Part shown: positions 853 to 18,123 of the stretch, piece after piece
Layout: every line of letters begins with the position of its first letter
Numbering within the stretch: position 1 is the first letter of the stretch
Source: Ardenticatenaceae bacterium
GTDB taxonomy: Bacteria > Chloroflexota > Anaerolineae > Promineifilales > Promineifilaceae
Assembly (NCBI GenBank): GCA_020634495.1
Contig: JACKBR010000070.1
Location: 1-18,123 of the forward strand
Direction: 5' to 3'
DNA length: 18,123 nucleotides
The notes under the pieces: generated by a model
What the model was told of the DNA's origin: nothing
Seen by the model: the letters and a program-made list of their open reading frames with translations, nothing else
The model's database searches: none
Position numbers and translations under genes: made by a program

Positions 853-879
853 AAATAAATACTCCCTAAAGTTGATGCC

Positions 880-1761
880 CTACTCTTCTTGTTCCTTAAC
901 CCAAGCCTCATAATAATCATGCCCATACTTTAACCAGTAAATAGTATCCTCAGATGGTGTGTTTTGGTACTCTGTAAATTTCCATACTCTAACAATTAAA
1001 ACTGAAACGGATTCTGGTTCTCCTACTGCTGCCCCCCACATTCCCTGTGCTATGTAATTTATTTCAGAACGGCCTGAACAGCGTAGAGATTCAATGCATA
1101 CTTTTTGATTGGCATCAAGCTCACGCCCGCTGATCTCCACACCATTATTGTTGTAAAACGGTGTGTCATATGCTTTTCGTCCTGAATCAAAGCCAGGCCA
1201 CGTCAGATCATGAGTGTATAAATCTTCTGCAATTTTGTCAGCTAACGCTTCGAATTCCTCAATGGGTATAAATGGGATCAATGTTTCTGTGTCTGAAATT
1301 TGTTCTGGAGGAAAGTCTTTTAAGTAAACTGTGTCACCGAAGCATTCGGGTAAAGACCTCTCACATAATTCCGGAGAGTGACCATTTTCAGGGTAGTTTG
1401 GGGTTGGTTCTGGAGAATCGGATTTTTTGTCTCGACCCTCTCGATCTTCCTGGCAAGCTGATTCCCAAGGGCTGCCGCATCTTTGATGCCCAGATGGATC
1501 GTTAAAGTTGACTGGATTGTTCTCTACATACGAATACCTATTAAAACTTTGTGGATTACTTGGATTGGGTACAATGGAATCTGCACTGGCAAAGCGGTTA
1601 ATATAAGACCCTGTACTCTTAACCAATTCTGGGAAGATGGAGCCTCGGTTTTTTCTTTGGTTCTCTTCTTTTTGGGCGAGTCCAAAAAGAAAGAACAAAG
1701 GACTGCTGCATACAAAGCTTGCGATGGGCGAGGCAAGTGGCGCGGCCAGAGGCCGGGCCAC
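880..1761 (-). CDS. Orphan Rhs C-terminal tip A (unassigned toxin domain)
   Basis: The frame is open for 293 codons, but only the part from about 1620 downwards is Rhs-derived. The first ~45 residues are a translation of repeat R1, and the GTG at 1761 has no convincing ribosome site. The Rhs core (1486..1596) reads RFASADSIVP...DPSGH and is followed by CGSPWESAC, an acidic linker, and a C-terminal domain containing EINYIAQGMWGAAVGE and a final DTIYWLKYGHDYYEAW. I do not recognise that domain with certainty. It may be distantly related to tip B, which has a similar D-[ST]-I...[HY]-D-x-[YF]-E ending. The Rhs shell is absent, so the tip is probably silent unless joined to a full Rhs gene. The downstream lipoprotein gene is its likely immunity partner. 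Confidence 0.65.
   Translation of the reverse strand: MARPLAAPLASPIASFVCSSPLFFLFGLAQKEENQRKNRGSIFPELVKSTGSYINRFASADSIVPNPSNPQSFNRYSYVENNPVNFNDPSGHQRCGSPWESACQEDREGRDKKSDSPEPTPNYPENGHSPELCERSLPECFGDTVYLKDFPPEQISDTETLIPFIPIEEFEALADKIAEDLYTHDLTWPGFDSGRKAYDTPFYNNNGVEISGRELDANQKVCIESLRCSGRSEINYIAQGMWGAAVGEPESVSVLIVRVWKFTEYQNTPSEDTIYWLKYGHDYYEAWVKEQEE
1486..1596 (-). repeat. Rhs core repeat, copy A
   Basis: This 37-codon segment runs from the Arg codon of N-R-F to the His of DPSGH. It is one of five collinear copies of identical length in the window. The plus-strand word GGTACAAT (1568..1575) is present in all five. The Rhs match stops at the Asn-Arg codons, immediately upstream of which the copies diverge into two end types. 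Confidence 0.85.
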
Positions 1762-1837
1762 AGCTCACCGTAAAGGCCCGCCCCGAGCAGGAGGTCCATA
1801 TTGGGGGCTTGACAAAGCTTGTCCGCAGCAGAGGCTC
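1622..1837. repeat. Non-coding junction element R1 (no recombinase pair attached)
   Basis: R1 lies between the stop of immunity B and the core of tip A. It contains GGGAAGATGGAGCCTCGG, a T-rich stretch, and a perfect 10-bp stem (1666..1675 with 1682..1691) closing the loop GCGAGT. A stretch with GCTGCATAC and GATGGGCGAGGCAAGTGG follows, nearly the same as in R3. Two AGCA-containing motifs (about 1775..1796 and 1811..1840) follow, the last ending 7 bases before the immunity-B stop complement at 1838. Unlike R2-R4, it has no recombinase genes on its left. No credible gene lies inside it, although frames run through it by chance. Confidence 0.75.
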
Positions 1838-2440
1838 TCACTCACCGTATAAGTATCTTCCCATCTGCTTATCAATAAAAATAATCACCTCATTGAACAT
1901 TTCTATTGACATATCTTGGTCAATCATAGAATTGAAGCGAATAGTATATTCTTGATATCTAGCAGCCATTATGCACTGAAAACCAAAATTCGGTTGATTA
2001 CCGCAACCAGCGTAAAATTCATCAGCAAGAGAGCTTTGATAAAACAAATCCGTATTTTCCCTATACAAAGCTTGCCGTGATTCAACCATAAACAGATTTG
2101 AGGCCTCTGTTTCTCTTCTATATCGCCACGCACGGTATGTAGCGAGACCATTTCCTTTTCGCCAGTAAATAGTCATTGCGCCACCGTCAAAAGCTCCCTC
2201 TAATGTAGAAGGGCGAGCAATTGGGTTAACAATTGCTTCATCAGGAAACAACTCTGGTGGTAGTCCCAAATCCAAAGCATTAAAGGAACGATCTTGAACA
2301 CAGTTTAAAAAAAGGCAGCTCCTTACTATCAACACGTAACCAACCAGTATCCAGAATAATAGACTGGCACTTATTATTACTATTATTTTTCTACAAGTTA
2401 ATGGCCGGTTTCTGCTTAACTTTCTAACGTATTTCTCCAT
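1838..2440 (-). CDS. Candidate membrane-anchored immunity protein for tip B
   Basis: This 200-residue protein starts at ATG 2438..2440, only 5 bp after the stop of tip B, so the two are probably translated as a pair. A basic N-terminus (KLSRNRPLTCRK) precedes one transmembrane helix at about residues 19-41. The remaining ~155 residues, with several cysteines, are predicted to lie outside the cell. I recognise no family. Position makes it the likely immunity protein, and an outward-facing domain suggests toxin B acts at the envelope or is caught on entry. The stop codon sits at the border of R1. The gene is visibly more AT-rich than the recombinases nearby. Confidence 0.6.
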   Translation of the reverse strand: MEKYVRKLSRNRPLTCRKIIVIISASLLFWILVGYVLIVRSCLFLNCVQDRSFNALDLGLPPELFPDEAIVNPIARPSTLEGAFDGGAMTIYWRKGNGLATYRAWRYRRETEASNLFMVESRQALYRENTDLFYQSSLADEFYAGCGNQPNFGFQCIMAARYQEYTIRFNSMIDQDMSIEMFNEVIIFIDKQMGRYLYGE

Positions 2441-2445
2441 TTCTT

Positions 2446-3279
2446 TTATTTTGCCTCTGGATCAATACAGTCCCGACTTGCCAAACAATCAAACCTTTGA
2501 ACAGAGTAGCTATTCTCCTGTGACTGAGCTGGGCCGGGAGGGGAAAAAGTATCGGGCGGAGGTTGAAATAATACTAAAATATCTGTTGTTAGTGCAGCAG
2601 AGAATTCACTATTGGTTATATCAGGCCCATATTCTTCAAACAAATCGTATCCAAAACCAACAGCAATTGAGTCATAAGGATTTTCAAAGGCATTATCCGC
2701 AAATGCTGGATTAAAATTACCTTCCAGAATTTCCAATATCCCACCCGCTATACGTGAAAAATCCTCAGGCATTCCAACAGAGGCTGCAACGTAACCATAT
2801 AGAATATTACCAGGAACAGAATAATCAACCCAACGACAAGCATCGCTACTGCATAGGGTAATACCCTCACCGAGAACCTCCATCTCACGTTTAACATCCC
2901 ACTCGCCAAATTTTGTATTAAGGTCCAAGAATGTTGTTGATGCTTCATCTAACCATACTGCAGCCCAAATTATGGTCGTATCGGAGTCATCAGTTAATGC
3001 TGCAATGTAAGCATACCTCATTAGATCCAGTTGTTCTGCCTGAGCACCTCGACGCATAGCACCTGGCAACCATCCAGTAAGATCATATTGGGGTTCGTTA
3101 CAAGTCTGTTCCCAAGGGCTACCGCATTCTCCATGTCCTGAAGGATCTATTAGTTTGAGAGGATTATTTCGAACGTAAGAGAATCTATTAAAGCTTTGCG
3201 GGTTATTTGTGTCTGGTACAATTGTATCCGCACTGGCAAAGCGGTTAAGAGTTGACCACTTATATATACCCAGATTCAT
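2446..3279 (-). CDS. Orphan Rhs C-terminal tip B (polymorphic toxin type 44-like)
   Basis: The frame has 277 codons from ATG 3277..3279, which has no good ribosome site. Residues 13-49 are the Rhs core (RFASADTIVP...DPSGH), then CGSPWEQTC as in tip A, then a ~220-residue tip. The segment around residues 152-216 (VDYSVPGNILYGYVAASVGM, then PYDSIAVGFGYDLFEEYG) resembles what I remember of polymorphic toxin type 44 domains. The biochemical activity is not asserted. The start lies only a few codons upstream of the core, so the tip lacks the delivery part and is probably a stored cassette. It is followed closely by a membrane-anchored candidate immunity gene and preceded by the palindrome and recombinase pair 1 in the opposite direction. 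Confidence 0.65.
   Translation of the reverse strand: MNLGIYKWSTLNRFASADTIVPDTNNPQSFNRFSYVRNNPLKLIDPSGHGECGSPWEQTCNEPQYDLTGWLPGAMRRGAQAEQLDLMRYAYIAALTDDSDTTIIWAAVWLDEASTTFLDLNTKFGEWDVKREMEVLGEGITLCSSDACRWVDYSVPGNILYGYVAASVGMPEDFSRIAGGILEILEGNFNPAFADNAFENPYDSIAVGFGYDLFEEYGPDITNSEFSAALTTDILVLFQPPPDTFSPPGPAQSQENSYSVQRFDCLASRDCIDPEAK
3133..3243 (-). repeat. Rhs core repeat, copy B
   Basis: This 37-codon copy of the Rhs core contains GGTACAAT at 3215..3222 on the plus strand. It is followed rightwards by the compact inverted repeat GGTTAA-GAG-TTGACC (3243..3257), shared with copy D. The codons just before the core read S-T-L-N-R. Confidence 0.85.
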
Positions 3280-3302
3280 GAAACCATAGCGGCACAGAGT
3301 TG

Positions 3303-3365
3303 GTGCCTCCTATGCGTAGAATGGTTGTTCACACCAAACAACCACATTCACGCCATAGGAGGCAC
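3303..3365. promoter_or_regulatory. Imperfect palindrome 1 holding the RBS of recombinase pair 1
   Basis: The left arm GTGCCTCCTATGCG (3303..3316) pairs with the right arm CGCCATAGGAGGCAC (3351..3365). Inner arms around AGAATGGTTGTT and AACAACCACATTC also pair, with one- and two-base bulges. The right arm contains AGGAGG, the ribosome binding site of the ATG at 3369. In a transcript starting left of the palindrome that site would be paired. TAGAATGGTT in the left arm is also present in palindromes 2 and 3. The element may control translation, bind the recombinases, or both. Confidence 0.7.
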
Positions 3366-3368
3366 AAT

Positions 3369-4235
3369 ATGTTGGACGAAATCACCTGCTTTGTCAACTG
3401 GGTTCGCCGCCGCAACCCCCAAGCCCACACCTGGCAAGATTACCGCTGTGACCTACAGCAGTTTGTCACCATCGTAGGCGACAAACCCCCAGCCGACGTT
3501 CAAATCACAGACATCGACGACTTCATCAACGAGCAAAACAAGTGTGGCCTGCACCCGGCTACCATCAACCGCCGTTTGGCAGCGGTTACTTCGCTCTACA
3601 CTTTCCTGCAAGCCGAAGAGCCAGAGCTGCTTTGCCCGGTGCTGCCGCAACGCCACACGCTGCGCGCGCCGCGTCGTCTGCCTCGTGCTGTGCCGGAAAC
3701 AGATTTGCACGCCTTTTTCGACGTCATTGAAGATAGGCGTGACCAGGCCATCTTTCTGCTCATGTTAAGGTGCGGCCTCAGAATTTCGGAGGTGGCAAGC
3801 TTGCAGCTGCAAGATTTGTACCTGAACGAAGCCCAGCCCCGGCTGCAAATCATGGGCAAGAACAGCAAGGAGCGGTCGGTTTACCTTTCCAACCAGGCTG
3901 AAACTGCCCTGCGGCGGTATCTGAACGAACGGGCTGAGGTGGAGGAAACGGCCGTTTTCCTCAACTACCGCCACGAACCCCTCGCCGCGATTGGTATCCA
4001 CAAACGGCTGGAGCGGTACCGACGACTAGCAGGGATTCACATCACTGCCCATCAGCTGCGCCACAACTTTGCCAACGACCTCGTCTGCGCCGATGTGCCC
4101 GTCACCAGCATTCAGCAGCTCATGGGCCACGCCTGGATTGCCACCACCGAAACCTACCTAGCAGCCAACAACCCCAAGGTGAAGGCAGATTTCTACGCCG
4201 CAGTTGAGCAGCTCGCGGGGTGGCAACATGGCTAA
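3369..4235 (+). CDS. Tyrosine recombinase 1a (XerC/D-like)
   Basis: This 288-residue site-specific recombinase starts at ATG 3369 behind the AGGAGG of palindrome 1; the longer frame from 3300 would translate the palindrome and is rejected. An N-terminal SAM-like core-binding domain (about 1-95) precedes the catalytic domain. The tyrosine recombinase residues are all visible: Arg138 in GLRISE, Lys164/167 in GKNSKER, His228 and Arg231 in HQLRH, His254 in GHAW, and Tyr263 as nucleophile. It would cut and rejoin DNA through a 3'-phosphotyrosine. The gene overlaps 1b by 8 nt, so the two are probably co-translated and act together. Motif positions match those of 2a and 3a without gaps, although the sequences have diverged. 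The target site is unknown, but the adjacent core and palindrome are obvious candidates. Confidence 0.92.
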   Translation: MLDEITCFVNWVRRRNPQAHTWQDYRCDLQQFVTIVGDKPPADVQITDIDDFINEQNKCGLHPATINRRLAAVTSLYTFLQAEEPELLCPVLPQRHTLRAPRRLPRAVPETDLHAFFDVIEDRRDQAIFLLMLRCGLRISEVASLQLQDLYLNEAQPRLQIMGKNSKERSVYLSNQAETALRRYLNERAEVEETAVFLNYRHEPLAAIGIHKRLERYRRLAGIHITAHQLRHNFANDLVCADVPVTSIQQLMGHAWIATTETYLAANNPKVKADFYAAVEQLAGWQHG

Positions 4236-5868
4236 GAAACAGAAACAAGCGCAAACCGCCCAAGCGCAAACCGCTGCTGAACGTTACGACACAGCGTTGC
4301 GTAAGGGCAGCAAGATTTCACCCGTACCAGATGGTTGTCCTGCGCCCTTGCCGACTGCTGCTTGGCCACCTAAAAACGTGGCCCTGTTAGAAAAATATCG
4401 TTTATGGCTAGCGGCTGGTGGTGTGGCGCAATCTGTCATTGAGCAGCACCGCATCCCCATGGCCGGGCATGTGTTGGGGCTCAACCTCAAGCCGCATTCC
4501 CAGCTAGACTTGGATGGCGACCTGCAAAAAGCGATGGTCTACATCGAGTCCAAGCAGCGGAGTGCAAGCTGGACGAGAAATTGCCGCCACTCCCTCGCCT
4601 GGTTCCGCCGCTTTTTGGAGATGGAACGCGGACTGATGCTGAATGCGTTCAACGGCACTTCCTACGGCAATGCTGAACGGTACCGGACAGGTTTACCGGA
4701 CTGGCTGCTGACTCAACTGGAGCAATTTCTGCATCTACGACAGGCCAGTTGGCGGCCGTCCCGTCGGGCGGTTTCCACCTACCAGTTTTGGCAGAAATAT
4801 ACCCGAATCTGGCGTTGGCTTTGCCAGCAGGAAGAGATTGAATTGGACAGTGTTGAAGGCATCATGGCCTTGCGCCGCAGCCATCTGTATGCCTACCTGG
4901 ATGAAAAGCTGGTAGAGGGGTATGCCATCGGCAGCATCAATCTTGACCTGTACAACTTCCAGGGCAGCCTGCGCTTTTTGCAGGAGCGGGGCTGCAAAGT
5001 ACCCGCTGCCTTGCTGACAATGCCTGGCTTGAAGAAGCCAGACAGCTTGCCTCGTTTCCTGACAGATGAGCAGATGCGGCGGCTGCGGGATGACCTGGAA
5101 CAGCAGCTTGCCAAAGCCAACACAACGGCCAGAAGGCGAATGTGCCGTTTAGAGCTGGCGGCGTTTTACTTGCTGTGGCAGGGTGGCTTAAGGCTGTGTG
5201 AACTGGAGGATTTAACGTTGGCAGACCTTTCGCTCGACCAACAACGCCTCGTCATCCGGCGCAGCAAAGGGGTGAAAGACCGCACCATCTACCTGACGGA
5301 AGCGACGGTCAAAGCAGTTAAAGCTTACCTTGAGATGCGTGGAGAAAGCATTGGTGGCATAAACGAGTACGTTTTCCTCTACCGCCACAAGCACATTTCC
5401 AGAGAGCTCATCCGCTGCCGACTCAAGGCAGCGGGGAAACGAACGGGCATAAAAGTGACGCCCCACATGCTGCGGCACACCTTTGCTACCCAACTGGTGA
5501 ATGCGGGCTGCAAGATTACCAGCATCCAGCATTTGCTAGGCCACCAGCGGCTGCAAACCACCTTGACCTATGCCCGGCTGCATGACCAGACGATTGCAAC
5601 GGATTATTACACGGCCATGGCGGTTATTGAGGCGCGGTTGCAGCCTGGCTTGCCGACTGTGGCCAACGGCCAAACCGAAACCAACGATGCGTCAGCCCAC
5701 CTATTGCAACTGGTCTCATCTTTGCAAGCGCAGCCGTTAACCGACAACCAGCAGGAGTTGCTAACTGAATTACAGCAGGGATTGGTTGTGCTGGTAGAGG
5801 CGGTGCAGAGAGCAGAAAAGCTTCCAAACACGGATATTGTTAACGAACAAGCGGCACTGCCCTCATAG
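4228..5868 (+). CDS. Tyrosine recombinase 1b (long form)
   Basis: This 546-residue partner of 1a starts at ATG 4228, inside the end of 1a, with GGGGTGG upstream. The N-terminal ~270 residues form a large helical region (PMAGHVLGLNLKPH, then NWR-type RQASWRPSRR), longer than in Xer proteins. The catalytic domain has Arg322 (GGLRLCE), Lys347/350 (RSKGVKDR), His413 and Arg416 (HMLRHTF), His439 (LLGH) and Tyr448. A C-terminal tail, HLLQLVSSLQ...PLTDNQQELLTELQQGL, is conserved in 2b and 3b and may mediate assembly. A long and a short tyrosine recombinase in one operon recalls Tn554 TnpA/TnpB, but no TnpC-like gene is present. The intact active site argues for a working enzyme. Its end abuts element R2. 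Confidence 0.9.
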   Translation: MAKKQKQAQTAQAQTAAERYDTALRKGSKISPVPDGCPAPLPTAAWPPKNVALLEKYRLWLAAGGVAQSVIEQHRIPMAGHVLGLNLKPHSQLDLDGDLQKAMVYIESKQRSASWTRNCRHSLAWFRRFLEMERGLMLNAFNGTSYGNAERYRTGLPDWLLTQLEQFLHLRQASWRPSRRAVSTYQFWQKYTRIWRWLCQQEEIELDSVEGIMALRRSHLYAYLDEKLVEGYAIGSINLDLYNFQGSLRFLQERGCKVPAALLTMPGLKKPDSLPRFLTDEQMRRLRDDLEQQLAKANTTARRRMCRLELAAFYLLWQGGLRLCELEDLTLADLSLDQQRLVIRRSKGVKDRTIYLTEATVKAVKAYLEMRGESIGGINEYVFLYRHKHISRELIRCRLKAAGKRTGIKVTPHMLRHTFATQLVNAGCKITSIQHLLGHQRLQTTLTYARLHDQTIATDYYTAMAVIEARLQPGLPTVANGQTETNDASAHLLQLVSSLQAQPLTDNQQELLTELQQGLVVLVEAVQRAEKLPNTDIVNEQAALPS

Positions 5869-6175
5869 CGAGACTACCCTGGGAGGGGGAGCCTCGGTTT
5901 TGCTACTTTGGGCGAGTCCAAAGTAGGGACAGACTTTGCTGCCCCACGGCGGCTGAACGCGAACAAAGCCATGTGGCGCGGCGGGACGCCGTGCCACAGC
6001 CACTACGAAGACCCGGCCCGAGCAAGGGACTGCTGCATGACAAACCTACGACAGGCGAGGCGGAGGCGAGTGGCACGTTCAGGAGAACGGCCACAGCCCC
6101 GCTGGGAAGACCTGTCCAGAGCAGAGGGTCGTTCCACATCCCAATGGGAATACCCGTCCTAAGCAAGGGTATCTC
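5869..6175. repeat. Non-coding junction element R2 (expanded form)
   Basis: R2 is the longest of the four junction elements, between recombinase 1b and the stop of immunity C. It has GGGAGCCTCGG, then a perfect 9-bp stem CTACTTTGG/CCAAAGTAG (5903..5911 with 5918..5926) closing the loop GCGAGT. Its stem differs from R1 and R3 on both sides, so pairing is kept. The CTGCATGAC/GGCGAGG part follows. Three small hairpins (around 6007..6031, 6106..6136, 6148..6175) share an 11-12 nt loop with AGCA. The third is TACCC/GGGTA around GTCCTAAGCAA. Overlapping frames here have no family features and are not genes. Confidence 0.75.
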
Positions 6176-7390
6176 TCAACTTCCTATAGGCAAAGCCATT
6201 AACCAAATACCCACTGGTAGATCCTCCACCCCAGGAAGGAAGTCCTGCTCACCAGCTATTAGAGCAATGAACCTACGGTTTGGTGAAATGATCCAATCTA
6301 CAATGTGTCCCTCGAATTTTTCTAGGACAAAATCTTCATTATTGGCTGGATCGCAATATCTTATGTGGGTTTCCAGGAAAGTATCAGAAAATTCTGACTC
6401 CAAGTAGATACATCGGGGAGTTAGTTCTGGATCAAGTAAAATAGCTTTGTCTGTATCGGCATTTGGTATTGACCATTGCTCCTTAGTCGCTCGATTATAG
6501 AAGTAGTTCGTTTCGGCACGCACCAATATTACTTCTCCATCGGCCGAAAGATCACGGACACTATAAAGAGATTTTTCACCTTCCCAGGGTGTATCTATTT
6601 GTCCCACAGACAATGTATCAAGGTCAATAAGCCAACTAGAATGTAAACAACGATATCCTGGTGTACCTGCTGTATTGACGATTGCTACATTCTCATTTGT
6701 TGACCATATTGGCGGACCTAATACTCCAAAACAACTATCTATTAAACCCAGTTGAAAATCTTGTCCATCCTCCCGTAACCACAAAGTATAACTGTAAGGT
6801 GGATAATCAGGATTGTCTGGTTCATCTGGAAATGGAATAGGTACTGGCAAGGGTAAACGGTAGAGGATTTTTCGACTGCTGATAGGTGACAGATTGAGTA
6901 ATTCAGCGTTTTCTGGCAAGGTAGCTTCTATCTGGGGTGCGAGTTCACGATATGTACGAGGAACGTAAGGAATTGATGTAGAGTTTCCACTATATATATC
7001 GTATGCCCATGCTTGCTGCGCTTCAACATCTTGATAATAAACTGTTTGGCTATCTTCTGACCACCAAACCGTCTCGGGTAAAGAAGAGTGTATGGAAAGA
7101 ACTGGCTCAATGGTAGCTATCTGCACCAGATCGAAGCTGACATCTGGTACAACTGTAGCTGAAATAGCGACTGGTGTTTGTATAACGGAGTTATCTACCG
7201 TTGTTGTCGGTGATGGTTGGATCGTCGATGGCAATACGGTTACTACAGGCAACGGTGTTGATGAAGCTGTCGCTGATTGCGCTGAACGTGTTTCCTCAGC
7301 TTGATAAACAGGCTCATTTGTTTCTAATGTTGTACAAGCCATAATCCCTACACACATTATAGAAACAATAACGAAAGACAAGACTCTCAT
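6176..7390 (-). CDS. Candidate immunity lipoprotein for tip C (beta-propeller-like)
   Basis: ATG 7388..7390 is chosen because GGAGG lies 8 bases upstream; the TTG extension to 7414 lacks a better site. The 404-residue product begins MRVLSFVIVSIMCVGIMACT, a lipoprotein signal with lipobox IMAC. A Thr/Pro/Ser-rich stalk (about 25-85) and a beta-rich domain follow. Repeated phrases such as WWSEDSQTVYY, LSADGEVILV and ISPNRRFIALI resemble blades of TolB-type propellers. The gene starts 14 bp after tip C stops. Tip C is an M23 peptidase, which acts on cell-wall peptides, so a surface lipoprotein is a sensible inhibitor or decoy. That pairing is inferred. The stop codon lies at the border of R2. 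Confidence 0.7.
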   Translation of the reverse strand: MRVLSFVIVSIMCVGIMACTTLETNEPVYQAEETRSAQSATASSTPLPVVTVLPSTIQPSPTTTVDNSVIQTPVAISATVVPDVSFDLVQIATIEPVLSIHSSLPETVWWSEDSQTVYYQDVEAQQAWAYDIYSGNSTSIPYVPRTYRELAPQIEATLPENAELLNLSPISSRKILYRLPLPVPIPFPDEPDNPDYPPYSYTLWLREDGQDFQLGLIDSCFGVLGPPIWSTNENVAIVNTAGTPGYRCLHSSWLIDLDTLSVGQIDTPWEGEKSLYSVRDLSADGEVILVRAETNYFYNRATKEQWSIPNADTDKAILLDPELTPRCIYLESEFSDTFLETHIRYCDPANNEDFVLEKFEGHIVDWIISPNRRFIALIAGEQDFLPGVEDLPVGIWLMALPIGS

Positions 7391-7404
7391 TTTTCTAACC
7401 TCCA

Positions 7405-8268: not shown

Positions 8269-8276
8269 AACTAGCG

Positions 8277-8332: not shown

Positions 8333-8338
8333 ACCAAA

Positions 8339-10887: not shown

Positions 10888-11042
10888 ACAAGATATGGGA
10901 AGAGGGAGCCTCGGTTTTTTCTTTGGTTCCTTTCTTTTTGGGCGAGTCCAAAAAGAAAGAACAAAAGATTGCTGCATACAAAACTTGCGATGGGCGAGAC
11001 AAGTGGCCCGCTGTGAAAACCTATCCGCAGCAAGGACAAACT
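10888..11042. repeat. Non-coding junction element R3
   Basis: R3 runs from the end of recombinase 2b to the stop of immunity D. It contains GGGAGCCTCGG, a T run, and a perfect 12-bp stem (10930..10941 with 10948..10959) closing GCGAGT. The segment with TTGCTGCATAC and GATGGGCGAGACAAGTGG follows, then one terminal AGCA motif (11029..11032) ten bases before the immunity-D stop complement. It is the closest relative of R1. The hairpin is not followed directly by a T run in either direction, so it is not a textbook terminator. Confidence 0.75.
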
Positions 11043-11765: not shown

Positions 11766-11776
11766 AAATAGTCCTC

Positions 11777-12670
11777 TTAAGGCATTCGCGGTGTATAAAT
11801 AACGTCTATCCCAGTGATATTTTCTTGCTCTAACGCCTCGCGCCAAAGATTCGCTGCCGCTTCATCGCTAAAATGCCATTGGATGTTTATTCCACCTGCT
11901 GCCTCAATTTGGTTTCGTGCTTGTTGAATCTTGCTATTATAAGCTCCGGAATTAGTTCCATAAACCATTCCCTTTACGAATCCTTCACTCCAGTCCTTAG
12001 CATCTAATAATACCATTTCACTGATATTTCCAGCATCATTTATTGTGCCTATAGCTCCATCAAAATCGACACCATTAAATCTAAACTCTAATCCTTCAAC
12101 ACCAGTAATTTGAGATTGATATCTTGCCCAGGCATCATCTGGGAAGTATTTAGAGACCCAATGACCGATAGCATTTCCGGCTTCATCAGACCACCCTGCC
12201 GGAATAAACCGGGTGGCCGCACGAGCAATGTTATCCCCCCATGCAGCGGGTATAAGAGGTAACATTCCCGCCGAATCATACCATTGAAAACCGTCACTTA
12301 AAGCTATTGCCCAATCGGCAGGTTCCCATAAGATCCCGGCTGCATTTTTGAAGAATTCTCCATAGTAATAACCGTTGGTATACTTATCCATAAAGCCTGG
12401 CAAGTAGGCTCCGGCTACTTGTAGCACGTCCGCCGTAGCACTCATCCCTGCTTGTCCCCCAACGACGAGACACTGCCCTGGTTTGCAATGACCAGATGGA
12501 TCGTTGAAGTTAATTGGATTATTTTCTACATAGCTGTAGCGGTTGTAGCTTTGTGGATTGGCGGGGTTTGGTACAATTGTATCTGCACTGGCAAAGCGGT
12601 TAAGAGTTGACCGGAAACACGAACCCAGAATCCTCTGGGTGGCTTGACATAAATTGTTAATGACCTCCAT
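11777..12670 (-). CDS. Orphan Rhs tip D: Tox-REase-5-like nuclease
   Basis: The frame of 297 codons starts at an ATG inside palindrome 3 without a ribosome site. The Rhs core occupies residues 25-61, then a ~130-residue Gly/Ala/aromatic linker, then a toxin domain from about 190. The domain has VDFDG (Asp204), LLDAK (Asp223, Lys225), a Gln-containing helix (KIQQARNQIEAAGG) and INIQWHFSDEAAA, ending ITGIDVIYTP. This order matches restriction-endonuclease-fold toxins of the Tox-REase-5 type: an acidic residue, then D/E-x-K, then Q-x-x-A-A and a W-H-F strand. It probably cuts DNA in the target cytoplasm. The Rhs delivery part is missing, so it is a stored cassette unless recombined with the Rhs gene to the right. 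Confidence 0.75.
   Translation of the reverse strand: MEVINNLCQATQRILGSCFRSTLNRFASADTIVPNPANPQSYNRYSYVENNPINFNDPSGHCKPGQCLVVGGQAGMSATADVLQVAGAYLPGFMDKYTNGYYYGEFFKNAAGILWEPADWAIALSDGFQWYDSAGMLPLIPAAWGDNIARAATRFIPAGWSDEAGNAIGHWVSKYFPDDAWARYQSQITGVEGLEFRFNGVDFDGAIGTINDAGNISEMVLLDAKDWSEGFVKGMVYGTNSGAYNSKIQQARNQIEAAGGINIQWHFSDEAAANLWREALEQENITGIDVIYTPRMP
12488..12598 (-). repeat. Rhs core repeat, copy D
   Basis: This 37-codon copy is flanked by the compact GGTTAA-GAG-TTGACC end (12598..12612) as in copy B, and contains GGTACAAT on the plus strand. It is the nearest silent copy to the expressed Rhs gene, 3715 bp from the equivalent base of copy E. Confidence 0.85.
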
Positions 12671-12719
12671 GAGATAGAATGGTTGCTCTCTACTTCAACC
12701 AATTTCATCTTATGGAGGT
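12663..12719. promoter_or_regulatory. Imperfect palindrome 3 holding the RBS of recombinase pair 3
   Basis: ACCTCCAT (12663..12670) pairs with ATGGAGGT (12712..12719), and AGATAGAATGGTTG (12672..12685) pairs imperfectly with CAACCAATTTCATCT (12696..12710). The right arm provides GGAGG for ATG 12726. Both arms differ from palindromes 1 and 2, yet pairing across the ribosome site is kept. TTGACA occurs just upstream (12644..12649), but no -10 box is well spaced from it. Confidence 0.7.
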
Positions 12720-12725
12720 TTTCTA

Positions 12726-13586
12726 ATGTTCAGCGACATTGACCGCTTTGTCAAATGGCTGCGCCGCCGCAATCCCCATGCCGACACCGCCAAGAGTTAC
12801 CAGTATCATCTACGCAAATTCACCGAAGTCGTCGGCGACTGTGCCCCCACCGACGTCACCTTGTACGACATTGACGACTTCATCGCGTTCCAGGCCGAGC
12901 GTGGCCTCAAAAGCAGCTCCATCAACCGCAGTTTAACGGCCGTTACCTCCCTCTACCGCTTCCTCGCCGACGAAGAGCCCACTTTAGAATGCCCCGTCCT
13001 GCGCCACCGCCACTGGCTGCGCGACCACCAGCGACTGCCCCGTGCAGTGCCTAAAGAAGAAGTGGAAAAGCTGTTTGCCGTCATTGAGGATTTGCGCGAC
13101 AAAGCCATCTTCCTCCTCATGCTGCGCAGCGGGCTGCGCGTTTCCGAAGTGGCCCGGCTCACTCTGCGCGACCTCTTTCTGGCCGAAAGCCCGCCCCGGC
13201 TGCGGATTCATGGCAAAAATGACCGGGAACGGTCAGTCTACCTCTCGGCGGCAACGGCGTTGGCACTGAATGCGTACCTGGAAGCAAGGCCAAAAGTGGA
13301 AAATGACACGGTCTTTCTCACCTACGCCGGGGCAGGGATCGGGGTGCGGGGCATCCAGAAGCGGTTACAGCAGTACCGCCAGCTGGCAGGCATAGAGCTT
13401 ACCGCCCACCAGCTTCGGCACAACTTTGCCAACAACCTCGTCCTGGCCGACGTGCCCGTCACCTCCATCCAAAAGCTGCTGGGGCACGTCTGGGTGGGCA
13501 CCACCCAAAACTACATCGCCGCCAATGATGCCAAAGTGAAAGCAGACTTCATCAAAGCAACTGAATGGCTGGAGGCGTGGCAATGA
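12726..13586 (+). CDS. Tyrosine recombinase 3a (XerC/D-like)
   Basis: This 286-residue recombinase starts at ATG 12726, seven bases after GGAGG in palindrome 3. The active-site set is complete: Arg138 (GLRVSE), Lys164 (GKNDRER), His228/Arg231 (HQLRH), His254 (LLGHVW) and Tyr263. It is collinear with 1a and 2a through the catalytic domain, and lacks the C-terminal extension of 2a. It overlaps 3b by ATGA. This pair lies closest to the expressed Rhs gene, so it is the best candidate for the enzyme of the most recent cassette event, but that is inference. Confidence 0.92.
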   Translation: MFSDIDRFVKWLRRRNPHADTAKSYQYHLRKFTEVVGDCAPTDVTLYDIDDFIAFQAERGLKSSSINRSLTAVTSLYRFLADEEPTLECPVLRHRHWLRDHQRLPRAVPKEEVEKLFAVIEDLRDKAIFLLMLRSGLRVSEVARLTLRDLFLAESPPRLRIHGKNDRERSVYLSAATALALNAYLEARPKVENDTVFLTYAGAGIGVRGIQKRLQQYRQLAGIELTAHQLRHNFANNLVLADVPVTSIQKLLGHVWVGTTQNYIAANDAKVKADFIKATEWLEAWQ

Positions 13587-15094
13587 GCGAGAAGCGAACC
13601 TTTCCCACGACTGCGGCCGTGCGGTATGACCGGGCGTTGAATAAAAGTTTGAAGCTCAATCCGCCGCCGCCTCATCTGGTGGTGCCGCACTTTTCTAGCT
13701 GCTGGCCTGCGGAAAATGTCACCTTTCTGGAGCAGTACCGAGATTGGCTCGTGGGCATTGGCGCGGCCGAGGCGGTCATCAACCAACACCGCCTGCCAAT
13801 GGCCGGGCATGTGTTGGGACTCAATCTCAAACCGCACCCAGAGCTGGATTTAGTCACCGACCTGGACAAGGCGGTCTGCTTCATTGAAGCCAGACCGACA
13901 AGTAAAAGCTGGCAGCGAAATTGTCGCCACTCGCTCACCTGGTTTTGCCGTTTTGTGAAGGAGCAGCGGGGGTTGGTTATCCGCGACCAATTTTCTTTTG
14001 GCGACGTGGCCCGGTTCCAGAAGGGTCTACCTGAGTGGCTCATTGCTCAGTTGACCAAATATCTGCACATTCGCCAGGCCAACTGGCGGCCGTCTCGCCT
14101 CGCCCAAATGACGACCCAGTTTTGGCATAAAGCTACTCGCATTTGGCGCTGGCTCTTTGAACAGACTGACATTCAGGCACCCCAAGACGTGACCCGCGAC
14201 CATCTATTTGCCTTCATCGATGAGCAGCTTGTGGCCGGGTACAAGGTGGCCACCATCAATCTCCATCTGCACACCTTTCAGGGGACGCTCCACTTTTTAC
14301 AGGAGCAGGGGATAGCCGTGCCCAATGCCGTGCTGACGCTGCCGGGACTGAAAAAGCCGCAGTCGCTACCCCGTTTTTTGATAGAGGCGCAGATGGTAGC
14401 CCTCAAAACAGACCTTGACCAGCGGGTGGAGCAGGCCAGGACAAGAGTTGCCATCAGGAATGCGCTCCTTGACCGAGCCATCTTTTACCTGCTGTGGCAG
14501 TGTGGCCTTCGCGTCGGTGAGCTGGAGGATTTACAGCAGACGGATGTGGATTTGGCGGCCGGAGTGGTGCTCATTCGAGCCGCCAAGGGGTTGAAGGACA
14601 GGTCTGTTTACCTGACTAAACGGGTCACTGAGGCCATTGAACAATATCTTGAGGTGCGTGGCCCGGCGTTGAGTGACCATCTGTTCATCTACCGGCACAA
14701 GCCGCTGTCGAAAGACCTGGTGCGCAACCGCATCAAGGCAGCGGGCAAGCGCACTGGCGTGAAGATGACGCCGCACATGCTGCGCCATACCTTTGCCACG
14801 CAGTTGGTCAATGCTGGGGCGAAGGTGACGACGATTCAGGCGTTGTTGGGGCATGTGCGGCTGAACACGACGATGACGTATGCCCGTGTGCATGACCAAA
14901 CGGTAATGGTTGACTTTTTTCGGGCAATGGAGCAGATTGAAGGGGTGCAAACGGCCGTTTTCGGTCCAGCAACGGTTACCCAAAACGCTCTTGCTTTGCT
15001 GGATAAGCTAGGGCAGGATGGATTGAATGATGAACAGCAACAGATTCTGGCTGAACTGCGCCGCTGTTTGGCGCAACCGACGATAGCTAGCTGA
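13583..15094 (+). CDS. Tyrosine recombinase 3b (long form)
   Basis: This 503-residue partner of 3a starts at ATG 13583 (ATGA overlap), with GGAGG seven bases upstream; the longer frame from 13565 is rejected. The N-terminal half carries LPMAGHVLGLNLKPH and RQANWRPSR. Catalytic residues are Arg310 (CGLRVGE), Lys335/338 (AAKGLKDR), His398/Arg401 (HMLRHTF), His424 (LLGH) and Tyr433. The C-terminal tail is shorter than in 1b and 2b but keeps QNALALLDKL and NDEQQQILAEL. It is convergent with immunity E and ends at element R4, which holds a strong hairpin. Confidence 0.9.
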   Translation: MSEKRTFPTTAAVRYDRALNKSLKLNPPPPHLVVPHFSSCWPAENVTFLEQYRDWLVGIGAAEAVINQHRLPMAGHVLGLNLKPHPELDLVTDLDKAVCFIEARPTSKSWQRNCRHSLTWFCRFVKEQRGLVIRDQFSFGDVARFQKGLPEWLIAQLTKYLHIRQANWRPSRLAQMTTQFWHKATRIWRWLFEQTDIQAPQDVTRDHLFAFIDEQLVAGYKVATINLHLHTFQGTLHFLQEQGIAVPNAVLTLPGLKKPQSLPRFLIEAQMVALKTDLDQRVEQARTRVAIRNALLDRAIFYLLWQCGLRVGELEDLQQTDVDLAAGVVLIRAAKGLKDRSVYLTKRVTEAIEQYLEVRGPALSDHLFIYRHKPLSKDLVRNRIKAAGKRTGVKMTPHMLRHTFATQLVNAGAKVTTIQALLGHVRLNTTMTYARVHDQTVMVDFFRAMEQIEGVQTAVFGPATVTQNALALLDKLGQDGLNDEQQQILAELRRCLAQPTIAS

Positions 15095-15300
15095 AACCAG
15101 CAACTAAAAAGATTGTTAACGAGCTAACGATACCCAAACCAAGAAAAGGCTGAGCTTGGGAGCCTAGCCTTTTCTTTGGTTCTTTCTTTTGGGCAATGCC
15201 AAAAGAAAGAACAGGTGGTTGTCGAATGACGGACCTACTACGGGCGAGGAAAGTAACACGGCGGGGAATCCAAGCGTACCTCTCCCCAGCAGTTGACCAT
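15095..15300. repeat. Non-coding junction element R4
   Basis: R4 lies between recombinase 3b and the stop of immunity E. It is the most diverged of the four elements. It has GGGAGCCTAGCC, a perfect 14-bp stem (15179..15192 with 15199..15212) closing the loop GCAATG in place of GCGAGT, and an ACGGGCGAGGAAAGTAACAC part. A final AGCA motif (15288..15291) lies nine bases before the immunity-E stop complement. The stem shares pairing but not full sequence with R1-R3. Confidence 0.7.
15137..15181. terminator. Probable bidirectional terminator between recombinase 3b and immunity E
   Basis: AACCAAGAAAAGGCT (15137..15151) pairs with AGCCTTTTCTTTGGTT (15166..15181) with a single bulged T and a 14-nt loop. 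Both 3' arms are T-rich (AGCCTTTTC on plus, AGCCTTTTCTTGG on minus). The two flanking genes converge here, so the hairpin could end both transcripts. It overlaps by three bases the second R4 hairpin, so the two could be alternatives. Confidence 0.6.
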
Positions 15301-15519
15301 CTATTTTGCAATCTCGAAAACTAGCATTATAAGTAAAATAGCATCCATAGCTGCTGCTATGAGCCCAGCAACAACCATTCCTCGTCCTACCTGTTTTTTA
15401 TAAGTTTTAAGTGCATCAGGACCATCTTGATTCGCACGATTTATCATAGCTTTCCCACGAGCTATTAGTATAAAAGTTAAGAATGAAAAGCCCAATAAGC
15501 CTTGCAAATAAATCAGCAC
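15301..15519 (-). CDS. Candidate two-helix membrane immunity protein for tip E
   Basis: The start is GTG 15517..15519, with AGGAG six bases upstream; the overlapping ATG two bases earlier runs into a stop after two codons. The 72-residue product has two predicted membrane helices (about 2-20 and 49-69) joined by a polar, basic loop (RGKAMINRANQDGPDALKTYKKQ). It lies 23 bp after the Rhs/tip E stop in the same direction, the immunity position. Small integral membrane immunity proteins often accompany toxins that act on the inner membrane, so tip E may be membrane-active. No family is recognised. Confidence 0.6.
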   Translation of the reverse strand: MLIYLQGLLGFSFLTFILIARGKAMINRANQDGPDALKTYKKQVGRGMVVAGLIAAAMDAILLIMLVFEIAK

Positions 15520-15542
15520 ATTTTGCTCCTAAAATGACAATC

Positions 15543-18123
15543 CTATTTTAACTTAAGGCGCTGGTCAAAATCTGTTTGAGTATATGCTCCACTTGCCCCA
15601 CCTCCTAGTATAATATACCCAACACTTATTCCCCAAGTTTCACCTGTAAATGGAACGCTTCCATCTTCCCAGAAAAAACTTGCCTGAGCCCCTTCTATAA
15701 AACTTAACTCAACGGTTAAGGTATGAAAAACCCCTTCATAATCAATGTTTTGGTCCAAGTTCCATACAAGCCCACCATAGGCCGCAGCATCGGCTTCTAA
15801 ACCCAATCCTGATCCTTGACCCATATAAGTAAAAATATCTATTTCCTCCGAATCAAGATTTCCCACGAGCTCTGCACCACCTACAATTGCCATAGGACCT
15901 GTTGCACTACCAGATATGCCTGGAAATATAATTGCATCTGGAAATACGATATCTTCCAAACTTGGTCCAATGTTTTGTGATATTTTTGTTGGCGGGGCTT
16001 CATACTCCACACCATAAATGTCTAGGAGTTCGACTATTCTGTCCGTCGTTCCAGACTGATATAATGGAACTAAAAACTCGCCGTATAGTCGTGCAAGACC
16101 ATCATCAGGTGTAAGAGGGTCAATATAATCTCTTAATTGAATCCAGGCATCGTGACATACTTGAAATGCTTCATCATCGCCATTTTCTTGGTACTGCATA
16201 CAGTGACCTGTTGGATCGGTAAAGACAAGCGGATTATTATTGACATAAGAGTATCTATTGAAGCTTTGCGGGTTATTGGGGTCTGGTACAATGGTGTCGG
16301 GAGAAACCATGCGGTTCGTGTTTGGCACGTAGTAGCGAGCGTTCATGTAGATCAGCCCAATGTCATTGCTGCCACTGTTGTTCCCCCGGTGGCCCGTGTA
16401 GCCCCGATCCGTGTAATCACCCGTCGGCTCAACTCGATAATCCCCAAACGGCTCATACAGCGCCCGTGCCTCTTGCAATTGGTAGGCGGTACCATTGTCA
16501 GGATTCAAGTAGCTCAACGTACTCGTGCTGCCCAGGTGATCGGTATGCATTGCAAACAGGAAGTTGCTCACCTGAACCCCATCTTCCAGTGTCCGTTTCC
16601 GCAAGAACACCGCCCGGCCGGCAATGCTGTACGTCGTCCGCTGCACAATCACCTCCGCCTGGGCCGGTGGCGGCGTGGGGGAAGGTGTCGGGCTGGGCAT
16701 TGCAGTGGCTGTGCTGGTAGCCGTTGGCGTTGGTCCGGGCACCGTGGCCGTTGGTGTGGCTGTACTGGTTGCTGTAGGTGTTGCTGTCGCTCCACCCCCG
16801 CCACCCGTTACACTCACGTTGTCAAACACGCCAGTTGCCAATGTTGTCGTGCTGTTGCCAGTTACTGCCATTCCCACGTAAATTGTCGTCCCCATCGTGA
16901 TTGTGCGCGTTTGCATCACAGACCAGTTCGTCCCATCGTTAGAGTGAGATAAGGTAAAGGTGTTGCCGCTGCGCTCAATACGCAACCATTCTGGCGCTCC
17001 TTGGGAATAACCGGCCACATCGGTAGTACTTCCTCCTGTACTGGCTCGGTCAAGTACCCGAACGCGGTTGCCTTGCACCACAGTCGTTACGTGGGCGGCA
17101 TTATCTGCCAAACTGTCCCGCATCATGATGCCTGCTCTTGGTGTCGAGCCACCGCCGCTTAATGAAACGGCATTGGCTGTAATGCTGCCATCTCCAGAGA
17201 GGCTTTGGTAAACAAAGTGGAAGGCATCGACGGTGCCAGCAATATCAGCCCCTGCGCCATCAATAGTGAATGTTCCACTTGTTTCATCAGCTGAACCAGT
17301 TACGCCTACGCCGCCAATATCAGCACTCACCCAGGGCGATTGCACTGGACCTGACAGCGGTGCCACCGCAGGCGATGCCTGGACCATGGGTGCAAGGAAG
17401 ACGCTATTCACCAGCAATCCCACTAGGCTCGCCAGTGAAATCGCTTTGGCTACCAAAATGCGATGCTGCCGCCAGGCCAGGCGTAGCCAGACACGATGTT
17501 TGGGTACCCGCAGCAGTTGCGTTGCACCCACCGGAATAATAAAGAGCGCGCTGCCCAACAAGACGTAGACAAACAGGCTAGCTGGTTCACCAGTATCCTC
17601 GTTTGTCGCGACTTTGCCGGTTCCGGCAATATTGCCACCACTGGCCAAGACTGTGCCCCCATTGGTAGTCGGCAAACTGGTTGCCATCAGGCCAGAAATC
17701 TCAGATGCGTCCAAAGCACGCGGAATAACCCGAACTTCGTCAATCTGCCCATCCCAGAAGCCCTGAGTCGTATTATCCGCTCGAGACCCAATTTTGAACA
17801 AGTTGGACTGACCAATTTGGCTTGGAACATCAGTAGTATCGCTAGCCATTAGCTGCCCATTAATATATATTTCTACAGCTTCACCTGGCCGAAACACACC
17901 GGTAATATGCACCCACTGGTTCAAATATTGGTTAAAGAAGCCATTGTATTCAGCAAGCCCTACATTGCCATTGTCGTCGTACACCCTGAACCGAAGATGA
18001 TCAATATCACCATATGCATCACCCAATGCCCAACCACGTAGTTTAGTGCTATCGCTGTTCCATTTATAGGTACTAACCACCAAACGGCCAAGACCTGTTG
18101 GTGCTGTTTCTGGTCGTACCCAG
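15543..18123 (-). CDS. Rhs-family polymorphic toxin, C-terminal part (LamG, membrane helices, Rhs core, tip E); 5'-partial
   Basis: The frame is open to the window edge (859 visible residues); TTG at 18083 is only an internal Leu. In order: a LamG/concanavalin-like domain (1-145, WVHITGVFRPGEAVEIYING); two hydrophobic helices (about 181-204 and 224-247) around a basic loop; a second beta-rich DUF1349-like domain (260-440, SNDGTNWSVM, IYVGMAVTGN); a T/P/A-rich linker (445-487); the Rhs-associated core (490-640, HTDHLGSTSTL, GLIYMNARYY, DTIVPDP, DPTGH); and tip E (641-859). Tip E has a Gly-rich, strand-like C-terminus and is not recognised. YD repeats are expected further upstream. It would display and deliver the tip. 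Composition shifts from GC-rich to AT-rich at the core, marking the tip as a replaceable module. Confidence 0.85.
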   Translation of the reverse strand, partial: WVRPETAPTGLGRLVVSTYKWNSDSTKLRGWALGDAYGDIDHLRFRVYDDNGNVGLAEYNGFFNQYLNQWVHITGVFRPGEAVEIYINGQLMASDTTDVPSQIGQSNLFKIGSRADNTTQGFWDGQIDEVRVIPRALDASEISGLMATSLPTTNGGTVLASGGNIAGTGKVATNEDTGEPASLFVYVLLGSALFIIPVGATQLLRVPKHRVWLRLAWRQHRILVAKAISLASLVGLLVNSVFLAPMVQASPAVAPLSGPVQSPWVSADIGGVGVTGSADETSGTFTIDGAGADIAGTVDAFHFVYQSLSGDGSITANAVSLSGGGSTPRAGIMMRDSLADNAAHVTTVVQGNRVRVLDRASTGGSTTDVAGYSQGAPEWLRIERSGNTFTLSHSNDGTNWSVMQTRTITMGTTIYVGMAVTGNSTTTLATGVFDNVSVTGGGGGATATPTATSTATPTATVPGPTPTATSTATAMPSPTPSPTPPPAQAEVIVQRTTYSIAGRAVFLRKRTLEDGVQVSNFLFAMHTDHLGSTSTLSYLNPDNGTAYQLQEARALYEPFGDYRVEPTGDYTDRGYTGHRGNNSGSNDIGLIYMNARYYVPNTNRMVSPDTIVPDPNNPQSFNRYSYVNNNPLVFTDPTGHCMQYQENGDDEAFQVCHDAWIQLRDYIDPLTPDDGLARLYGEFLVPLYQSGTTDRIVELLDIYGVEYEAPPTKISQNIGPSLEDIVFPDAIIFPGISGSATGPMAIVGGAELVGNLDSEEIDIFTYMGQGSGLGLEADAAAYGGLVWNLDQNIDYEGVFHTLTVELSFIEGAQASFFWEDGSVPFTGETWGISVGYIILGGGASGAYTQTDFDQRLKLK
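16203..16313 (-). repeat. Rhs core repeat, copy E (in the expressed Rhs gene)
   Basis: This is the core of the full Rhs gene, from N-R-M to DPTGH, the same 37-codon length as the four silent copies and with GGTACAAT on the plus strand. Upstream it continues into genuine Rhs sequence (ARYYVPNTNR), unlike copies A-D. This shows where the orphan tips lose homology. Confidence 0.9.

What the first reader, a model, noticed from the sequence alone, without database searches (positions are those of the whole stretch)
1486..16313. Array of silent Rhs tip cassettes interleaved with two-gene tyrosine recombinase operons
Five copies of a 37-codon Rhs core lie in the same orientation at 1486, 3133, 8107, 12488 and 16203. 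Only the last is joined to an Rhs delivery protein. Each is followed by a different tip and a candidate immunity gene. Three diverged recombinase pairs lie between them on the other strand. Orphan Rhs or CdiA tips are known, usually explained by homologous recombination; dedicated paired tyrosine recombinases in every interval are not something I know described. Exchange between direct cores E and D would remove 3715 bp and fuse tip D in frame to Rhs. Insertion of new modules at the core would push old tips leftwards, as in an integron.
Basis: partly seen in the sequence, partly recalled or inferred. Interest (0 to 1): 0.93.

Follow-up and report, generated by a model that had tools for sequence, protein, structure and literature searches.

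The report
Mobile elements that swap toxin tips
In a group of environmental bacteria, small mobile DNA elements carrying their own pair of recombinases appear to insert at one exact spot inside a toxin-delivery gene, giving it a new toxin and a likely matching immunity gene and shelving the old ones behind it, which may be the missing enzyme-driven route for toxin-tip exchange.

Summary
In detail: five Rhs cores and three tyrosine recombinase pairs lie at the stated places (pairs in 3 of 4 intervals). The array resolves into four end-to-end elements (1607-3253, 3254-8227, 8228-12608, 12609-16323). Each runs from an 11-bp arm at the 5' edge of its core, through tip, candidate immunity gene and, in three, the recombinase pair, to an inverted copy of the arm. 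Among the window and related Chloroflexota, 18 of 19 testable elements have matching inverted ends, against 7 of 1650 and 8 of 3800 in controls. Arms follow recombinase relatedness, not tips. A core lies on the opposite strand behind the large recombinase in 27 of 39 testable places (14 of 16 of the closest outside the window), never on the wrong strand. One genome has the same end at four places. Identical Rhs anchors (80 of 80 residues) carry different tips, parting at the predicted crossover. Best reading: site-specific integrative elements, built like Tn554-type elements, that enter the Rhs core, fuse their own tip in frame and push older tips into an array. Two papers state that no integrase was known for such exchange. 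Movement has not been observed.

The parts
12609..16323 (-). Element E: core-side arm 16313-16323, core, tip E, candidate immunity gene, hairpin repeat, recombinase pair 3, rec-side arm and spacer 12609-12625
   Evidence: Perfect 11-bp inverted ends; blastn homology to L005 starts exactly at 12609
8228..12608 (-). Element D: core-side arm 12598-12608, tip D (Tox-REase-5-like), candidate immunity gene, recombinase pair 2, rec-side end 8228-8245
   Evidence: Inverted ends match 10 of 11
3254..8227 (-). Element C: core-side arm 8217-8227, tip C (Peptidase_M23), candidate immunity gene, recombinase pair 1, rec-side end 3254-3270
   Evidence: Inverted ends match 11 of 11
1607..3253 (-). Element B, without recombinases: core-side arm 3243-3253, tip B (Ntox44), candidate immunity gene, hairpin repeat, rec-side end 1607-1624; both ends identical to those of element D
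   Evidence: no recombinase frame in the interval
190..1606 (-). Oldest displaced module A: core-side arm 1596-1606, core A, tip A, candidate immunity gene 190-852 (lipoprotein-like start, by eye)
   Evidence: left end not resolved in the window
15543..18122 (-). Rhs delivery gene (Laminin_G_3 and Rhs core) fused to tip E; 5' end outside the window
15301..15519 (-). Candidate immunity gene for tip E (72 aa, hydrophobic by eye)
   Evidence: Position; no Pfam match
11777..12670 (-). Displaced core D and tip D frame
11043..11846 (-). Candidate immunity gene for tip D
   Evidence: Position; weak Imm52/TsiV resemblance below cut-off
7405..8268 (-). Displaced core C and tip C frame (Peptidase_M23)
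6176..7414 (-). Candidate immunity gene for tip C (lipoprotein-like start, by eye)
   Evidence: Position
2446..3279 (-). Displaced core B and tip B frame (Ntox44)
1838..2440 (-). Candidate immunity gene for tip B
   Evidence: Position
880..1761 (-). Displaced core A and tip A frame
3369..4235 (+). recS of pair 1 (small tyrosine recombinase)
   Evidence: PF00589 1.3e-33
4228..5868 (+). recL of pair 1 (large tyrosine recombinase)
   Evidence: PF00589 6.3e-33
8339..9271 (+). recS of pair 2
   Evidence: PF00589 5.5e-34
9268..10887 (+). recL of pair 2
   Evidence: PF00589 5.8e-34; AlphaFold model mean pLDDT 82, pTM 0.46, best PDB matches XerA
12726..13586 (+). recS of pair 3
   Evidence: PF00589 1.7e-31
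13580..15094 (+). recL of pair 3
   Evidence: PF00589 1.1e-35
3303..3365 (+). Leader hairpin covering the likely recS ribosome-binding site, pair 1
8274..8335 (+). Leader hairpin, pair 2
12662..12720 (+). Leader hairpin, pair 3
15155..15254 (.). Hairpin repeat between recombinase and immunity genes; other copies at 1630-1741, 5880-6065 and 10896-11012

Best explanation
Each module is a site-specific integrative element. It carries, in order: an arm of the recombination site, an Rhs core segment, a toxin tip, a likely immunity gene, two tyrosine recombinases (one small, one large) on the other strand, and the inverted arm. The recombinases act on the joint of the two ends of a circular form: arm, 6-7 bp spacer, inverted arm, a dif-like layout. 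They insert the element into the Rhs gene at a matching spot in the core, crossing over at the spacer/arm border 4 nt before the first core codon. The element's own core then continues the Rhs frame, so the delivery protein gets a new tip and the cell a new immunity gene, while the old core, tip and immunity gene end up behind the element. Repeated insertion builds the array, newest next to the Rhs gene. Because the junctions have the same codon phase, precise excision would return the previous tip in frame. Shown by sequence: element borders, covarying ends, linkage to Rhs cores, the same end at several places in one genome, the same anchor with different tips. Inferred: catalysis by these proteins, the circle, use of the new tip, excision, immunity function.
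For: Inverted 11-bp ends in 18 of 19 testable elements (3 of them in the window; 15 at -4, 3 of a second clade at -46) against 7 of 1650 other offsets and 8 of 3800 shuffled flanks. The closest recS has exactly the same arm in 15 of 18 cases, e.g. wC-L005Y 90% and wE-L005X 95% identical, while their tips show no similarity (M23 against Ntox44 for the first). The four window elements abut without overlap. Homology of element E to L005 starts at its predicted end. G398 has the same 17-bp rec-side end at four flanks and G311 one at three; three of the seven flanks are Rhs cores entered 4 nt before codon 1. Linkage 27 of 39, wrong strand 0 of 39; cores are rare, 111 hits in 26 genomes. Same anchor, different tip: L005 against P0123, 80 of 80 residues upstream and 24 of 38 in the core; L001, which carries an element, against native-type P0125 and P0126, 76 and 75 of 78; P0122 against P0127, 80 of 80. 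Rec-side spacers travel with the element family; core-side spacers belong to the upstream neighbour.
Against: No excision, circle or insertion was observed; no joint of the commonest arm family was found in 26 genomes. The offsets -4 and -46 were read from largely the same elements before they were counted, and arms of different families are partly alike: 18 of 152 cross-family comparisons reach one mismatch or fewer. L016 has no matching far arm. Three of seven same-end flanks in G398 and G311 show no Rhs core, and L006/L142 sits inside the core instead of at -4. A core on the recS side is present in only 15 of 33 testable places, so displaced tips are often lost or some insertions lie elsewhere. 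Among more distant recombinases (under 500 bits) only 10 of 20 have a core behind recL. P0125 and P0126 part after the core, so homologous recombination also swaps tips. The loci are mostly draft MAGs, and the window's own genome is not held.
Confidence: 0.85

Rival explanations
1. Tips are exchanged only by homologous recombination between cores, as proposed for enterobacterial rhs; the recombinase pairs are unrelated selfish elements that like to land beside Rhs cores.
For: Breakpoint after the core in P0125 against P0126, 36 of 38 core residues shared; the published model uses homologous recombination with circular intermediates (passages of PMC2935791).
Against: The tip and its likely immunity gene lie inside the inverted ends, not beside them. 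Breakpoints in L005/P0123, L001/P0126 and P0122/P0127 fall at the 5' edge of the core, with 24, 25 and 28 of 38 core residues shared. Core orientation relative to the pair is fixed, 27 to 0.
Confidence: 0.07
2. The pairs are a programmed inversion or excision switch owned by the host that reorders existing tips, not mobile elements.
For: Same codon phase at the junctions; a leader hairpin hiding the likely recS ribosome-binding site suggests control.
Against: Cores in the window are all in one orientation. Three of the four mapped elements have their own diverged pair and arms. The same end occurs at several places in one genome, and near-identical pairs with different tips occur in different genomes. 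Both are signs of mobility. The two ideas are not exclusive.
Confidence: 0.05
3. The inverted ends are only regulatory palindromes, and the array grew by tandem duplication and decay.
For: A separate leader hairpin and hairpin repeats exist in the same intervals.
Against: Tips are mostly unrelated: 8 homologous pairs among 33 tips, none between two tips of the window. Each window recS is more like one from another genome (66-95%) than the small recombinases of pairs 1 and 3 are like that of pair 2 (53-59%). Arms of neighbouring modules differ at 4 to 6 of 11 positions.
Confidence: 0.03

Closest known systems
Tn554-related elements, with strand-biased circularizing elements (SEs) and GInts
   [quoted passage not shown] The best plasmid relatives of recL include a Rhodococcus pair of two adjacent tyrosine recombinases.
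   Different: No third recombination gene (TnpC, Tfp, Srap) was recognised between recL and the immunity gene. The target is inside a toxin-delivery gene, and the cargo replaces its 3' end in frame. The rec-side 6 bp stays with the element family rather than visibly recording the last donor site.
Integrons
   Same: New modules enter at one place next to the expressed position and push older ones back; long arrays with one recognised recombinase pair exist (G001 contigs 45 and 56).
   Different: Attachment site lies inside a coding sequence. Two recombinases travel with the module. IntI profile scores are far below cut-off (70-76 against 265 bits). No attC-type folding was tested.
Rhs C-terminal displacement (orphan rhs tips)
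   Same: Core fragments with different tips and immunity genes in one orientation behind one full-length rhs gene.
   Different: Published models use homologous recombination. [quoted passage not shown]
   Same: Arrays of immunity genes beside a tyrosine recombinase (rAID, passages of PMC12247911) or, in several cases, beside XerC/D-type genes (polyimmunity loci, passages of PMC3482391).
   Different: Those arrays hold immunity genes without toxins; here each module has toxin tip, candidate immunity gene and core segment.
Xer/dif systems
   Same: Two recombinases; two 11-bp arms around about 6 bp (dif layout recalled, not from a call); recL folds closest to XerA.
   Different: Not chromosome dimer resolution; scores below Xer equivalog cut-offs.

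Membership tests
Tn554-like elements | Tandem small and large tyrosine recombinase | tested here: met
   286-310 aa and 504-546 aa, PF00589, coding regions overlapping in all three window pairs
Tn554-like elements | TnpC-type third gene | tested here: inconclusive
   The stretches between recL and the candidate immunity gene are 307, 155 and 206 bp. One search lists small mechanical frames there that overlap the hairpin repeat; none was recognised as a gene, and none was tested for homology
Tn554-like elements | Inverted ends and fixed target | tested here: met
   18 of 19 elements; entry into native cores 4 nt before codon 1 in 8 of 11 cases examined, 10 of 11 if two 7-bp spacers are allowed
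Tn554-like elements | 6-bp footprint copied from the last donor site | tested here: inconclusive
   Rec-side 6 bp is the same within an element family at different sites, which suggests it is part of the element but does not exclude a common donor
Tn554-like elements | Sequence relation to Tn554 TnpA and TnpB | not tested
   Only indirect: recL 28.8% identical over 59% to the larger protein of a Rhodococcus pair
RIT elements | Three tyrosine recombinase genes | tested here: not met
   Two per element
Integron | IntI integrase | tested here: not met
   TIGR02249 70-76 bits against a cut-off of 265
Integron | Cassettes recombined by folded attC sites | not tested
   G001 cassettes share a conserved end, but no attC model was tried
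Rhs polymorphic toxin | Rhs core followed by variable toxin tip and immunity gene | tested here: met
   TIGR03696 above cut-off for E and D, just below for B and C, A not given; Ntox44, M23 and CDI nuclease tips, Tox-REase-5 below cut-off; of 20 tips from other loci 5 matched a family and 15 nothing at E 0.01; immunity by position only
rAID | Immunity genes without toxins | tested here: not met
   Each window module has a tip
Gamma-mobile-trio | GmtY and GmtZ equivalogs (family recalled; its paper was not seen) | tested here: not met
   GmtY at most 36 bits against 340, GmtZ at most 19 against 600
Xer chromosome resolution pair | XerC/XerD equivalog score | tested here: not met
   XerC 138-170 bits against 335; XerD 121-155 against 330

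The most novel reading that the evidence does not exclude
This is an integron analogue for toxin tips whose attachment site lies inside a coding sequence. Autonomous elements with their own recombinase pair give rise to recombinase-less toxin-immunity cassettes that are mobilised in trans (window element B; the G001 arrays of 7 and 6 tips with one recognised pair on those contigs). They accumulate as a store from which older tips can be brought back in frame by excision.
Probability: 0.45. Interest if true: 0.93.

Novelty: new variant of a known kind. Interest (0 to 1): 0.88.

Why it matters
[quoted passage not shown] These elements supply a candidate integrase pair, its site and its target, so the question becomes directly testable in a laboratory strain. 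If true, toxin weapons in these bacteria are mobile elements in their own right, spreading attack and protection together by rewriting the end of a resident delivery gene.

Tried and rejected
Core-to-core homologous recombination as the sole mechanism: rejected because tip and candidate immunity gene lie inside matched ends, though one protein pair shows it also occurs. The hairpin repeat between recL and the immunity gene as the element end: rejected, because it lies inside the mapped ends and one copy in G002 (L147) has no core in the 19 kb fetched. Phage origin: no DNA match of the element E region (window 12600-16400) in 50,697 phage records; of 24 recL relatives in viral contigs 23 are 29-36% identical over part of the protein, and one is 54% over a short stretch and was not followed up. 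Circular joint: none found for the commonest arm family. First AlphaFold model of recL: poor (mean pLDDT 54), replaced. Tips A and E: no toxin family above cut-off. Literature searches listed no earlier description that I recognised. Prevalence figures (19 of 396 in the class, 12 of 56 in the order, 4 of 400 in the phylum) are lower bounds, because searches scored at most three candidates per genome and the cut-off was strict. One place found (G428) was not fetched and is in no count.
Full report
WHAT IS THERE. Five Rhs cores lie on the minus strand at the coordinates given, and three pairs of a small and a large tyrosine recombinase lie on the plus strand. In the alignments of the three pairs, the residues that I recall as catalytic for tyrosine recombinases (R, K, HxxR, H, Y) are invariant. 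Core E is fused to a long Rhs frame; the others are not. The A-B interval has no recombinases. Tip B matches Ntox44 and tip C Peptidase_M23; tip D resembles Tox-REase-5 just below its cut-off. Tips A and E match no toxin family above cut-off. Immunity genes are named by position only.

ELEMENT BORDERS. Aligning the junctions upstream of the cores showed an 11-bp arm starting 4 nt before the first core codon, and its inverted copy beyond the start of the recombinase operon, before the next core. In the window the arms match 11 of 11 for element E (AAACACGAACC), 11 of 11 for C (TTATATATACC) and 10 of 11 for D (AACTCTTAACC). Element B has the same two ends as D but no recombinases. The mapped elements abut exactly: 1607-3253, 3254-8227, 8228-12608, 12609-16323; their lengths equal the core spacings. 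Independently, blastn homology between element E and a locus of another genome (L005, 86% over 2616 columns) begins at window base 12609.

RELATED GENOMES. A scan of one genome per species with the large recombinase gave 49 loci; the first 18 (L001-L018) are all Chloroflexota MAGs by title, and 16 of them have an Rhs core in the locus. The other 31 loci are more distant, have no core by the profile and are in no later count. Searches of whole genomes found relatives in 19 of 396 of the class, 12 of 56 of the order and 4 of 400 of the phylum. A protein search found 469 relatives at E 1e-40 or better among 7995 scored candidates and listed 120; those with an organism in the source name are Chloroflexota groups, except one labelled Gammaproteobacteria. 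After removing duplicates there are 46 distinct places with a large recombinase, 3 of them in the window. With at least 1.5 kb beyond it, an Rhs core (from 18 bits up) lies on the opposite strand within 7 kb in 27 of 39, and none on the wrong strand. For the closest relatives (500 bits or more) it is 17 of 19, or 14 of 16 outside the window. Those two misses are L003, whose cargo position holds an RNase-barstar pair beside a DUF4158 frame, and L006. In 26 genomes with the recombinase the core profile finds 111 places in 24 of them, in about 155 Mb, so assuming even spread a core within 7 kb on a given side and strand is expected in well under 1% of cases (my arithmetic). The core search is tuned to the window's cores and misses other Rhs types.

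COVARYING ENDS. Nineteen elements had a recS start within its first five profile positions, at least 150 bp beyond it and a well scored core behind; 13 others printed by the script were left out for lack of such a core (11) or of flank (2), and three loci were skipped as repeats of others. Fifteen of the 19 have matching arms at -4 and three, forming a second recombinase clade, at -46, which is 14 codons upstream. The one miss is L016. Controls: 7 of 1650 other offsets and 8 of 3800 shuffled flanks reach one mismatch or fewer; arms of other families do so in 18 of 152 comparisons, since several arm families are alike. The two offsets were read from largely the same elements, so this count measures consistency rather than an independent prediction. 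Arms follow the recombinases: for 15 of 18 recS sequences the nearest relative has exactly the same arm; the exceptions are window D, L099 and L106. Tips do not follow: window C carries M23 and its closest relative L005Y carries Ntox44; Ntox44 tips occur with three different arms (window B, L005Y and the L092 element with the AAACACGAACC arm); and related tips (68%) sit in L005X and in the -46 clade element of L092.

CROSSOVER POINT. On the rec side, 6-7 bp after the arm stay the same within an element family whatever the flank; on the core side the 6 bp belong to the upstream neighbour. The crossover is therefore placed at the border of spacer and core-side arm. Of 11 rec-side ends that I examined and that face a native (non-element) core, eight have the core starting exactly 4 nt before codon 1 after a 6-bp spacer (L001, L007, L010, L011, L014; L135, L136, L141). 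L097 and L106 fit with a 7-bp spacer. L006/L142 lies inside the core.

SIGNS OF MOVEMENT. A pattern for the rec-side end has 12 matches in 7 of 26 genomes, against 1 for the same pattern read backwards. G398 has the same 17-bp end at four flanks (two slightly different copies beyond it) and G311 at three; in six of these seven the contig breaks within 540 bases on the recombinase side, as expected for repeated elements. Three of the seven flanks are cores at -4, one is a partial core, and three show no core. At protein level, L005 and P0123 share 80 of 80 residues up to the junction but 24 of 38 in the core and have dissimilar tips. L001, which carries an element, and P0125 and P0126, with native-type cores, share 76 and 75 of 78. 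P0122 and P0127 share 80 of 80, P0129 and P0130 62 of 72, the window and P0124 63 of 79. P0125 and P0126 share 77 of 80 upstream and 36 of 38 in the core and then diverge, the mark of ordinary recombination after the core (which lists the 7 pairs with at least 75% identity upstream). In L092 an element of the -46 clade lies upstream of one with the AAACACGAACC arm, a visible order of insertion.

ARRAYS WITHOUT RECOMBINASES. In G001, contigs 45 and 56 hold 7 and 6 cores with one recognised pair (contig 56 is 8 kb and was read whole). Ten of the 13 junctions share a conserved end before the arm. Together with window element B this suggests recombinase-less cassettes mobilised in trans. This is inference.

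CONTROL OF THE RECOMBINASES. In 16 of 16 elements chosen for it the recS leader folds into a hairpin that covers its likely ribosome-binding site, with an invariant TAGAAT. The support from RNAalifold is modest: 6 consensus pairs, 4 with double changes, a covariation term of -0.22, and one pair lost in 5 of 16. recL has an extra N-terminal helical region; its best fold matches are XerA and other tyrosine recombinases, at low whole-chain TM-scores.

COMPARISON. Closest in build are Tn554-like elements and SEs: one ordinary and one large recombinase, target specificity, 6-bp spacer, inverted ends (passages of PMC10214605 and PMC3414803). No TnpC, Tfp or Srap gene was recognised here, and the cargo and target are different, so membership is not claimed. 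In behaviour it resembles an integron, but IntI scores are far below cut-off. [quoted passage not shown] the Vibrio effector paper likewise notes no evidence for an integrase (PMC5361080, passages); the Salmonella orphan study proposes homologous recombination (PMC3967940, passages). Searches for a prior description listed none that I recognised; I read only the passages cited, and the library holds open-licence papers only.

VERDICT. The array is real, recurrent and organised by site-specific ends. What is missing is direct observation of movement.

Noticed in passing
L015:1986-3206 and the outer junctions of L109 and L151: An IS110-family transposase gene ends right at the Rhs recombination site, and a similar end sequence stands before the first cassette of both G001 arrays, as if an insertion sequence targets this site.
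   Followed up: partly
L003:11689-12879: An element with matching recombinases carries an RNase-barstar pair in the cargo position, next to a DUF4158 frame, without a recognised Rhs core.
   Followed up: partly
window 1630-1741, 5880-6065, 10896-11012, 15155-15254; L147: A well conserved hairpin repeat lies between the convergent recombinase and immunity genes; in G002 one copy (L147) has no core in the 19 kb fetched. Possibly a two-way terminator.
   Followed up: partly
window 1596-16323: Neighbouring elements of the window never share the same arm (4 to 6 of 11 positions differ), and no joint of the commonest arm family was found in 26 genomes; such a palindromic joint may be unstable.
   Followed up: partly
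L092, L095, L099: A second recombinase clade inserts 14 codons further upstream in the Rhs gene, with its own arm sequence.
   Followed up: partly
window 190-852 and 6176-7414: Candidate immunity proteins A and C have lipoprotein-like starts (by eye), which for C would fit a cell-wall-cutting M23 tip.
   Followed up: no
window 3303-3365, 8274-8335, 12662-12720: Leader hairpins hide the likely ribosome-binding site of the small recombinase in the 16 elements examined.
   Followed up: partly
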